Assembly (NCBI GenBank): GCA_944323255.1
Contig: CALURU010000009.1
Coordinates: 1 to 64,000 of the forward strand
From: Candidatus Gastranaerophilales bacterium
GTDB taxonomy: Bacteria > Cyanobacteriota > Vampirovibrionia > Gastranaerophilales > Gastranaerophilaceae
Reading direction: 5' to 3'
Length of the DNA stretch: 64,000 nucleotides
Below are positions 1 to 59,019 of the stretch, piece after piece. The notes under the pieces are model-generated. The model was given only the letters and a program-made list of their open reading frames with translations. It made no database searches and had not been told where the DNA came from. Position 1 is the first letter of the stretch. Every line of letters starts with the position of its first letter. The translations under genes and the position numbers were made by a program.

Positions 1-177
1 ACAAGTTCAAAAGGGAGACAGTGAGTTATAAGACAATTTAGGAATTGAATCCAATGTCTCCCGTCCAAAAGGTTAAACTCGGCAAACCGACCGGCAAGGA
101 ACAAGTTCAAAAGGGAGACAGTGAGTTATAAGACAATTTAGGAATTGAATCCAATGTCTCCCGTCCAAAAGGTTAAA
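1..177 (+). repeat. tandem ~100-bp variable-stem repeat, array 1 (two copies)
   Basis: Bases 1-77 recur exactly at 101-177, a period of 100; the 23 bases between (78-100) complete the unit. Within each copy GGGAGACA (13-20) can pair with TGTCTCCC (55-62) across a 34-base loop. The array touches the window edge and may continue upstream. It is followed by a plus-strand terminator, so it probably lies in the 3' part of a plus-strand transcript. Read on the opposite strand it resembles the arrays at 33050, 55108 and 58598. Confidence 0.9.
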
Positions 178-213
178 AAAACAAAACATAAAATTTCAGT
201 ATTACGACTCAGT

Positions 214-29040: not shown

Positions 29041-29058
29041 ACAATTGAAATTAAAAAA

Positions 29059-29428
29059 GAATAAAGCAGCTCATAAGCCGTGTTCTGTTCGGGAAAATTC
29101 CTTGATAATCATCTATCTTGTCTTGAGATTACTCTCAAGCTCCAGCGATTTTTCAGGCATCGGCGGACACCTCAAACGCCTGTTTCAATCTTGCATCCGA
29201 CCGGGGTTTAGCTGGCCGGTATCTTCCGATACCGCCGGTGATGCTCTTACCTCACCGTTGCACCCTCGCTCCTGCCACTATAGGGTGGTTAGCAGTATAT
29301 TTTCTGTGCCACTATCCGCCAGCTTGCGCTGCCCGGAGTTTCTCCGGCGGTCTGTCCTTGGATGCACGGACTTTCCTCACCCTTATAGACAATTCTTCTA
29401 AAGGCGCGATTATCCGGCTGCTTTATTC
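29059..29428 (-). ncRNA. rnpB: RNase P RNA (bacterial type A)
   Basis: The catalytic RNA that trims tRNA 5' leaders. Read on the minus strand, P1 is GAATAAAGCAGC (29417-29428) pairing with 29059-29070. Conserved segments occur in order: GAGGAAAGTCCGTGC, GGCAGGAGCGAGGGTGCAAC, the AGGTAAGAGCATCACC-type core, and near the end AGAACACGGCTTA. Length about 370. Open frames on either strand here are accidental. Confidence 0.96.
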
Positions 29429-32754: not shown

Positions 32755-33009
32755 TTACACTGCATAAACGCTAACTTGTTTTCTGTCACGTCTGTGCGGC
32801 TCAAATTTCACCTGCCCGTCAATTAAAGCAAATAAAGTATCATCTGAACCAATACCCACATTGTTGCCAGGGTGAATTTTCGTTCCTCTCTGACGAACAA
32901 GGATATTGCCGGCTTTAACAACTTCGCCGCCAAATTTCTTTACGCCTAATCGCTTGGCTTCCGAATCACGACCGTTACGGGTTGATCCCATACCTTTCTT
33001 ATGTGCCAT
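32755..33009 (-). CDS. rpmA: 50S ribosomal protein L27
   Basis: L27 sits by the peptidyl-transferase centre. [20 protein letters not shown] and [15 protein letters not shown] are unmistakable. It begins directly with MAHKKG, so no N-terminal extension needing cleavage is present. It normally follows rplU closely; here 710 bases of repeats lie between them. Confidence 0.98.
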
Positions 33010-33049
33010 TTTTATTCTCCTTTTTTCTTTTTTTTTTAACTATACTTAT

Positions 33050-33719
33050 CGGATGACATTTCGCAATATTACTAATTTAATTTTATTTTTCCCTGTCATC
33101 CTCTGCTGACTTTGCTACCAGCTGGCTGCATTTGGTGTTTTGCCTCTTGGCGGATGACATTTCGCTATATTACTAATTTAATTTTACTTTTTCCTGTCAT
33201 CCTCTGCTGACCTTGTTACCAGCTGGCTGCATTTGGTGTTTTGCCTCTTGGCGGATGACATTATGCTATATTACTAATTTAATTTTACTTTTTCCTGTCA
33301 TCCTCTGCTGACCTTGTTACTGGCTGGCTGCATTTGGTGTTTTGCCTCTTGGCGGATGACATTATGCTATATTACTAATTTAATTTTACTTTTTCCTGTC
33401 ATCCTCTGCTGACCTTGTTACTGGCTGGCTGCATTTGGCGTTTTGCCTCTTGGCGGATGACATTTCGCAATATTACTAATTTAATTTTATTTTTTCCTGT
33501 CATCCTCTGCTGACTTTGCTACCAGCTGGCTGCATTTGGTGTTTTGCCTCTTGGCAGGTGATATAGATATCTCGAATTATTTTTATTTTCCCGATCACCC
33601 TTTGTAAACCCAGCCTGCATATCTATGCTTGTCAGTTAACCTCGGCATCATTACCAATTTAATTTATTTTGCCCGGTCAACCCCTGCAGCACCGCAGCCA
33701 AAGGAAAGCAGTCAATGGC
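33050..33719 (-). repeat. tandem ~101-bp variable-stem repeat, array 2
   Basis: Five near-identical copies begin at 33050, 33151, 33252, 33353 and 33454 (period 101). Two degenerate copies follow from 33555 and about 33633. In each good copy GGATGACA (33051-33058 in the first) can pair with TGTCATCC (33094-33101) across about 35 bases containing ACTAATTTAATTTT; the right arm is followed by CTCTGCTGACTTTGCTAC. In the degenerate copies the arms differ but still pair: GGTGAT/ATCACC (33557/33594), then GTTAACC/GGTCAAC with one mismatch (33635/33675). The array fills the whole gap between rplU and rpmA. No open frame of note. Confidence 0.95.
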
Positions 33720-54980: not shown

Positions 54981-55483
54981 GTAGTTACCTCGCTAGTTTA
55001 TTAAATTATATCATATTCAGTTTTTAATCAACCATCCATTAGTACTAAAACGTTAGATTAATTTTTTTTGCTAGCTGAAGCCTAAATTTTTACAAAAATT
55101 TACTTTTTTAACCCTTTGGGCGGGGGACATTAACTTCTATATTGTAGGTCAGCTTTACTAAGTTATTGTTATTGTGAAGGGTGAAGGGTGAGGTGTGAAG
55201 GGAGCTTTTAAAAATATGTAGGTCAGGTTTTACCTGACAATAACTACAAGTCTATTTTAATACTCCAAGTCCCCCTTTAAAACATAACTCCTAGTTAAAA
55301 ATCAGCTTGTTAACCCTTTGGGCGGGGGACATTAACTTCTATATTGTAGGTCGGCTTTACTAAGCCGACAAAAACTTTTTTCGGGTGAAGTGTTAGGCGT
55401 GAAGTGTGAAGGGAGCTTTTAAAAATATGTAGGTCAGGTTTTACCTGACAATAACTTTTGTGAAGGGTGAAGTTAAAATCAAA
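54981..55483 (-). repeat. repeat region, array 4 of variable-stem repeats with insertions
   Basis: A 503-base stretch without a gene. Two blocks (55108-55248 and 55310-55457, offset 202) share TTAACCCTTTGGGCGGGGGA, then an AT stretch, GTAGGTC hairpins, GTGAAGG heptamers and GTAGGTCAGGTTTTACCTG. GGGGGAC (55122-55128) can pair with GTCCCCC (55269-55275); the flanks of both arms resemble array 1 read on the other strand (TTAACCTTTTGGACGGGAGA there). So it looks like a variable-stem repeat whose loop was invaded by palindromic repeats. Confidence 0.75.
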
Positions 55484-58578: not shown

Positions 58579-58597
58579 TTTTTTTACCTATACTTTT

Positions 58598-58870
58598 CGG
58601 TTGACATCGGTCAAGATTACTAATTTATTTTGTTCCGCCAGGTCAACCTCTGCTGACTTTGCTACTAACCGGCTGCACTTGGCACTCTTTTCACCACCGG
58701 TTGACATTGGTCAAGACTACTAATTATTTTGTTCCGCCAGGTCAACCTCTGCTGACTTTGCTACTAACCGGCTGCACTTGGCACTCTTTTCACCACCGGT
58801 TGACATTGGTCAAGACTACTAATTTGTTTTATCCCGCCGGGTCAACCTCTGCTGACTTTGCTACTAACCC
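58598..58870 (-). repeat. variable-stem repeat, array 3 (three copies)
   Basis: Copies begin at 58598, 58698 and 58797 (period 100/99). GGTTGAC (58599-58605) can pair with GTCAACC (58642-58648); then CTCTGCTGACTTTGCTAC as in array 2. The third copy is cut short at about 58870 where AACCCAACATTAAC joins it; the same string ends a GTAGGTTGGGTTTACC hairpin at about 58962-58987. The 441-base gap between fliF and fliG holds only these repeats and AT-rich filler. Confidence 0.93.
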
Positions 58871-59019
58871 AACATTAACCTTGTTCAAGTGCCTTTTGTT
58901 AAACCTAGCTCTTCATTCTACAAACTCTATTCAATTTTCAATGTATTCTTTTTCACTTGTAGGTTGGGTTTACCAACCCAACATTAACTTTTGCAGGGTG
59001 AGTACGCTTACCCGCATTC

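What the first reader, a model, noticed from the sequence alone, without database searches (positions are those of the whole stretch)
33050..33719. Variable-stem repeat family: arms change between arrays but keep pairing
Four arrays of ~100-bp units share layout (short arm, ~35-base loop, complementary arm, ~50-base linker), and within arrays 2 and 3 also text (TACTAATTTAATTTT-like loop and CTCTGCTGACTTTGCTAC). The arms differ: GGGAGACA/TGTCTCCC at 1, GGATGACA/TGTCATCC at 33050, GGTGAT/ATCACC at 33557, GTTAACC/GGTCAAC (one mismatch) at 33635, GGTTGAC/GTCAACC at 58598, GGGGGAC/GTCCCCC at 55122. Changes on both sides that restore pairing are what selection on a hairpin looks like, in RNA or single-stranded DNA. 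Arrays 1 and 4 resemble arrays 2 and 3 only loosely by eye.
Basis: seen in the sequence. Interest (0 to 1): 0.85.

Follow-up and report, generated by a model that had tools for sequence, protein, structure and literature searches.

The report
Gut-bacterium repeats with self-repairing hairpin stems
A family of ~100-base repeats scattered in front of genes of one genus of uncultured gut bacteria (Gastranaerophilales) keeps a base-paired stem while the letters of the stem change on both sides, which shows that the folded hairpin, not the sequence, is what evolution has preserved.

Summary
Each ~100-bp unit carries an 8-bp stem (7 pairs scored) around a ~35-nt A/T-rich loop. In 135 units from the genome and its congeners, 96.3% of stem cells pair (shuffled 81.7 ± 0.7%), and 120 cells are changed on both sides (shuffled 23.4). 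A structure-blind alignment gives 88 of 120 units with 7/7 Watson-Crick pairs and 14 different stem sequences. On a tree built without the arms, 31 pair changes are Watson-Crick to Watson-Crick on a single branch. Arrays 1 and 4 belong to the family: array 1 is inverted, and array 4 is interrupted by a REP.

The units form a genus-level family of small interspersed repeats, absent from Rfam and from the viral, phage and plasmid collections searched. They sit mostly between co-oriented genes in sense orientation, with an oligo-A end 18-45 nt before start codons. They are mostly inherited vertically, and no mobilising enzyme was found.

Best reading: a new member of the BOX/ERIC/REPIN kind whose hairpin is kept in single-stranded form, more likely as leader or intercistronic RNA than only as transposition ssDNA. 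The covariation is shown; the mechanism is inferred.

The parts
33031..33555 (-). Array 2: five 101-bp units (hairpins 33051-33101, 33152-33202, 33253-33303, 33354-33404, 33455-33505; stem GGATGACA/TGTCATCC), in the rplU-rpmA spacer; the oligo-A end faces the rpmA start codon (33009)
33557..33599 (-). Decayed unit, arms GGTGAT/ATCACC (one pair changed C-G to T-A)
33614..33706 (-). Decayed unit, arms AGTTAACC (33634-33641) / GTCAACC (33676-33682)
58579..58872 (-). Array 3: three units (stem GGTTGAC/GTCAACC; 5' arms at 58599, 58699, 58798; 3' arms at 58642, 58741, 58841) in the fliF-fliG spacer, ending 21 nt before fliG ATG (58578)
1..182 (+). Array 1: two units in opposite orientation (hairpins 13-62 and 113-162; stem GGGAGACA/TGTCTCCC); the array runs to the contig end
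55103..55290 (-). Array 4: unit with arms GGGGGAC (55122-55128) / GTCCCCC (55269-55275), its loop interrupted by a REP-like element
55303..55352 (-). Partial unit: 5' arm GGGGGAC at 55324-55330 followed by a REP-like element; no 3' arm seen
32755..33009 (-). rpmA (ribosomal protein L27), gene downstream of array 2
   Evidence: TIGR00062
33720..34157 (-). rplU (ribosomal protein L21), gene upstream of array 2
   Evidence: TIGR00061
57529..58578 (-). fliG, gene downstream of array 3
   Evidence: TIGR00207
59020..60585 (-). fliF, gene upstream of array 3
   Evidence: TIGR00206

Best explanation
The units are a genus-level family of small, non-coding interspersed repeats of the BOX/ERIC/REPIN kind. 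Read along the transcribed strand, a unit is CGCCCGATGCAGCC-NGC-NNGTAGCAAAGTCAGCAGAGG, then the hairpin GGNNNAC...A-rich loop...GTNNNCC, then CGATAAGTNNAGTTAAAAAA. Units spread in the past into transcribed spacers, with their oligo-A end just before ribosome-binding sites or start codons, and then multiplied head to tail within a spacer. Today they are inherited mainly in place. What is preserved is the ability of a single strand to close the stem. Because they lie in sense orientation inside operons and leaders, I infer that selection acts mostly on the RNA, where the units serve as (or pass as harmless) leader or intercistronic hairpins that shield or punctuate the transcript. Shown: the family, the covariation, the gained spacers, the orientation and vertical inheritance. 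Inferred: past mobility and the RNA-level role.
For: Covariation. Presence: 39 of 65 congeners carry the unit, against 1 genome outside the genus in family-wide and order-wide samples. Gain of spacer: most congeners whose fliG upstream was read have a short fliF-fliG gap with a native ribosome-binding site, others have unrelated repeats there, and G000, G044, G038 and G062 have unit arrays, with G043 a truncated unit; rpmA is similar. Orientation: in 30 co-oriented gene pairs the array lies in sense, in 4 antisense (orthologues not removed); about 16 different genes have the oligo-A end within 50 nt of the start codon. Vertical inheritance: the nearest relative is the same locus in another genome for 55 of 74 units. 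RNA folding z = -2.1 to -4.4 for single hairpins, -6.4 for two tandem units. At the fdx leader most of the ~21 congeners read without units there show some other predicted stem-loop after the -10 box, of different sequence, while seven have units. Broken pairs are G-U on the transcribed strand 11 times, on the other strand 6 times (a lean, not significant).
Against: No transcript data exist here. The strand bias could follow from a preference for A-rich sites near ribosome-binding sites instead of RNA function. The downstream genes (rpmA, fliG, fliP, fliQ-like, a pilB-like ATPase, tsaE, fdx, secG and others; most named from sequence by eye) share no regulon. The loop is long and weakly structured. 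Many congeners lack the units at the same genes. G-U asymmetry is not significant. The fdx leader hairpin is a separate observation and was not tested for covariation.
Confidence: 0.55

Rival explanations
1. The hairpin is kept only because a mobilising enzyme (for example an HUH transposase such as a RAYT) recognises it in single-stranded DNA; at its resident sites it has no role.
For: Interspersed, tandem-prone, genus-restricted distribution. Internal branches show mostly compensated changes and terminal branches mostly breaks, as expected if only propagating copies need the stem. REPINs, thought to be mobilised this way, also show compensatory changes and tandem arrays (PMC3116915).
Against: No Y1 transposase in the window's genome. 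The RAYT-like proteins of congeners have no unit within the ~1.5-kb flanks searched; at the two loci read in full (L217, L219) a different REP, GTAGGTTGGG, lies there instead. Most units are vertically inherited. The 35-nt open loop is unlike compact REP stems.
Confidence: 0.3
2. A specific cis-regulatory RNA (riboswitch, protein-binding leader or thermometer) that has been copied to several genes.
For: Units form leaders and intercistronic RNA at conserved positions.
Against: No common function among the genes, variable copy number, presence and absence between close species, no conserved structured core beyond one stem, no Rfam match.
Confidence: 0.07
3. A SINE-like element copied through an RNA with a 3' oligo-A end that is primed at A/T tracts.
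For: Units end in A5-A8 directly before unrelated sequence; first units of arrays start at varying points at the other end, like 5' truncation.
Against: Exact target sites and duplications could not be defined; A-rich ribosome-binding regions explain the oligo-A without it; no reverse transcriptase was searched for.
Confidence: 0.04
4. attC-like recombination sites or another ssDNA recombination array.
For: Tandem folded sites with arms that vary but pair.
Against: No conserved RYYYAAC/GTTRRRY ends, no gene cassettes between units.
Confidence: 0.02
5. Chance pairing or one recent duplication.
For: Units within one array are 93-100% identical.
Confidence: 0.01

Closest known systems
REPINs / REP elements with RAYT transposases
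   Same: Small extragenic repeats, hairpin in ssDNA or RNA, compensatory changes common, tandem clusters of near-identical copies (PMC3116915)
   Different: Unit is a single stem with a ~35-nt loop, not two inverted GTAG-REPs; no RAYT in this genome and no unit within the searched flanks of RAYT genes in congeners. A true REP family coexists in the same spacers.
BOX, RUP and SPRITE elements of Streptococcus pneumoniae
   Same: Species-group-restricted repeats that form stem-loops when transcribed, present in modular or multiple copies, nested with other repeats (PMC3049150)
   Different: No boxA/B/C modules or terminal inverted repeats; BOX elements are over-represented between convergent genes, whereas these lie mostly between co-oriented genes in sense.
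ERIC/IRU and other enterobacterial MITE-like repeats
   Same: About 100-130 bp, co-transcribed, orientation matters, effect on mRNA stability shown for ERIC in Yersinia (reviewed in PMC2229807)
   Different: ERIC is one long stem-loop with short terminal inverted repeats and TA at its ends; here one short stem, no terminal repeats seen, oligo-A at one end, head-to-tail arrays.

Membership tests
REP/REPIN (RAYT-mobilised) | Y1 transposase (RAYT) in the genome, flanked by the repeat | tested here: not met
   No PF01797 in G000; 14 of 23 congeners have one, but no unit lies in the ~1.5-kb flanks of the 12 loci fetched
REP/REPIN (RAYT-mobilised) | GTAG at the foot of a short palindrome, pairs of inverted copies | tested here: not met
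   GTAG occurs ~15 nt from the stem on one side only; no inverted doublets as a rule
REP/REPIN (RAYT-mobilised) | Compensatory changes in the hairpin | tested here: met
Classical MITE | Terminal inverted repeats and target-site duplication | tested here: inconclusive
   No terminal repeats seen by eye; exact target site not resolved
Small interspersed hairpin repeats (broad kind: BOX/ERIC/RUP) | Short, non-coding, many copies at unrelated intergenic sites, stem-loop when single-stranded, present or absent between relatives | tested here: met
Known structured RNA family | Match to an Rfam model | tested here: not met
attC / integron array | Conserved RYYYAAC and GTTRRRY ends and cassettes | tested here: not met
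   ~100-bp units without genes between them
IS91-like rolling-circle elements | Y2 transposase in the genome | tested here: inconclusive
   No PF04986 match in 8 genomes, but the control set gave none either

The most novel reading that the evidence does not exclude
The units are portable mRNA hairpins. In this genus a stem-loop of almost any sequence is needed in certain leaders and intercistronic gaps (for example the fdx leader), and repeats of several families, this one foremost, supply and replace it, so that the hairpin's presence is conserved while its sequence is free to turn over.
Probability: 0.2. Interest if true: 0.7.

Novelty: new member of a known kind. Interest (0 to 1): 0.5.

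Why it matters
It is a clean case, apparently undescribed, of strong covariation in a bacterial interspersed repeat: 14 interchangeable, fully paired stems within one genus, with copies at orthologous sites in many species. That lets one ask whether such repeats are preserved as transposition substrates or as RNA parts, a question that is open for most repeats of this kind. It also adds to the annotation of Gastranaerophilales genomes, where contigs often end at these arrays.

Tried and rejected
A mobilising Y1 transposase was searched for: absent in G000, present in 14 of 23 congeners tested but with no unit in its fetched flanks. Y2 transposases: nothing, but the control was empty too. Rfam, IMG/VR, phage and plasmid collections: no match (one sub-threshold WsnRNA46 hit in L009 lies outside the units). 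An ORF flanked by inverted units in G044 (L065) looked like a possible autonomous element, but it is a DJ-1/PfpI-like gene (judged from its sequence, not searched) between nested repeats. The inner hairpin (ATTGGT...ACCAAT) is present only in some stems and is not supported across the family. G-U asymmetry, which could tell the RNA strand, leans to the transcribed strand but is not significant (11 vs 6). Exact insertion points could not be fixed, because spacers differ too much between species. Literature searches for repeats in Melainabacteria returned nothing relevant.

Full report
1. What is there. The window (37% G+C) belongs to a 2.23-Mb genome in 49 contigs. Its L27 and flagellar genes, and the organisms that carry the same repeat, place it in Candidatus Gastranaerophilales, the gut Melainabacteria. 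The named sites check out. Array 2 lies between rplU and rpmA, and array 3 between fliF and fliG. The genome holds more copies outside the window, among them an array on contig C26 in which units with GGGCAACA/TGTTGCCC and GGTTGACA/TGTCAACC alternate while sharing linker text. Arrays 1 and 4 belong to the same family: array 1 is inverted, and array 4 has a REP-like element in its loop.

2. Covariation. A covariance model was built from 16 of the genome's own units. It finds the unit in 39 of 65 congeners. From fetched regions, 135 units were aligned. The seven stem pairs are standard in 96.3% of cells (shuffled 81.7 ± 0.7), with 120 cells changed on both sides (shuffled 23.4 ± 4.0) and a covariation score of 0.386 (shuffled 0.129; slid structures at most 0.101). 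Because that alignment was fitted to the structure, I repeated the count on a structure-blind MAFFT alignment: 116 double-changed cells against 23 expected, 88 of 120 units fully Watson-Crick over seven pairs, 14 distinct stems. An unguided scan of all column pairs puts the stem pairs at z = 23.9, 20.8, 6.8 and 6.5; only one other pair, neighbouring columns in the left flank, reaches 7.6. On a tree inferred without the arm columns, changes on the two sides of a pair fall on the same branch far more than expected (p = 1e-15, 5e-11, 2e-8, 9e-5 for four pairs), and 31 of them go from one Watson-Crick pair to another.

3. Where selection acts. Double changes dominate internal branches (19 against 6 breaks), while breaks dominate terminal branches (18 against 12; Fisher p = 0.013). 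This fits either purifying selection that has not yet removed recent breaks, or selection only on copies that propagate. Units at the same locus in different species are usually each other's nearest relatives (55 of 74), so most copies are inherited in place. Locus by locus, arms differ between species: fliG TTG, GTG or AGG; a pilB-like gene TTG, GCA or GAG; rpmA ATG, GTG or TTG (middle three letters of the 5' arm). Some loci show ongoing breaks; at fdx several are G-U pairs on the transcribed strand. Over the whole tree the G-U asymmetry is 11 to 6, which is not significant.

4. Anatomy and position. On the transcribed strand the unit begins near CGCCCGATGCAGCC, passes a conserved GTAGCAAAGTCAGCAGAGG, forms the stem, and ends CCGATAAGTNNAGTTAAAAAA. 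The oligo-A end lies 18-45 nt before the start codon of about 16 different genes. Of arrays between co-oriented genes, 30 are in sense and 4 antisense (counted with a simple ORF caller and without removing orthologues). Most congeners whose fliG upstream was read have only a short fliF-fliG gap with a ribosome-binding site, some have other repeats there, and the arrays appear in one group of close species. The rpmA spacer shows the same contrast. In G044 many units sit inside the spacer of another repeat, GTCATTGCGAGG...GCAATCC.

5. Distribution. In samples of the family and the order, only one genome outside the genus has a match. None in IMG/VR, phage or plasmid records. No Rfam family. The model rests mostly on sequence, so distant relatives could be missed.

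6. Mobiliser. The genome has no Y1 transposase. Fourteen of 23 congeners tested have a RAYT-like one. Within the flanks searched none has a unit beside it; the L217 and L219 loci, read in full, are preceded by copies of the REP family GTAGGTTGGG...CCCAAC, which also occurs in the window. So this family is not shown to be RAYT-driven.

7. An unexpected parallel. At the ferredoxin gene fdx (58 aa), most of the congeners read that lack units there have a predicted stem-loop of differing sequence directly after a TATAAT box, several with z from -2 to -6.8, some weak (G011 z = -0.2), while seven species (G034, G046, G050, G051, G042, G063, G064) have units of this family (in four of these the -10 box was not found by the script in the stretch it examined). 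This suggests that some leaders need a hairpin of any origin. It was not tested for covariation and is kept as an inference.

8. Verdict. The covariation is real and strong. The kind is known: REPINs show compensatory changes and tandem clusters (PMC3116915), BOX elements form stem-loops in transcripts (PMC3049150), and ERIC affects mRNA stability in an orientation-dependent way (PMC2229807). This family is new to Rfam and to the papers I could search. Its mechanism is not settled; I favour RNA-level retention of once-mobile repeats (0.55) over retention as a transposition substrate only (0.30).

Noticed in passing
window 55144-55456, 58959; L217, L219: A second hairpin repeat with variable but paired arms, GTAGGT-YRGG...CCYRAC-A, looks like a REP: copies lie just before the RAYT-like gene in L217 and L219. 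It nests inside units of the 33050 family at 55122 and 55324.
   Followed up: partly
L233-L261 (fdx upstream regions): Most congeners read have a leader stem-loop of unrelated sequence right after a TATAAT box in front of a 58-aa ferredoxin gene; in seven species the 33050-type repeat takes its place.
   Followed up: partly
L057, L058, L065, L095, L097, L101 (G044): A MITE-like repeat GTCATTGCGAGG...GCAATCC / TGGACTGCC...CTCGCAGTGAC carries 33050-type units in its spacer, which may explain the high unit count in G044.
   Followed up: partly
L153, L154, L157, L158, L159, L167 (fliF-fliG gap): Several congeners have other long repeats (AGTGACTAAGTG..., CTTATAAACCCCTAAAC...) in the fliF-fliG gap, so this gap seems to collect different repeats.
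   Followed up: no
window 29058-29425: RNase P RNA (class A) on the minus strand, overlapping the mechanical ORF 29045-29401 on the plus strand, which is therefore probably not a gene.
   Followed up: no
L118 (G034), L121 (G046), upstream of rpmA: Where the array is absent or decayed, a different short stem (GGGTAGCT/AGCTATCC; GTTGAT/ATCAAC) lies at the same place before rpmA.
   Followed up: no
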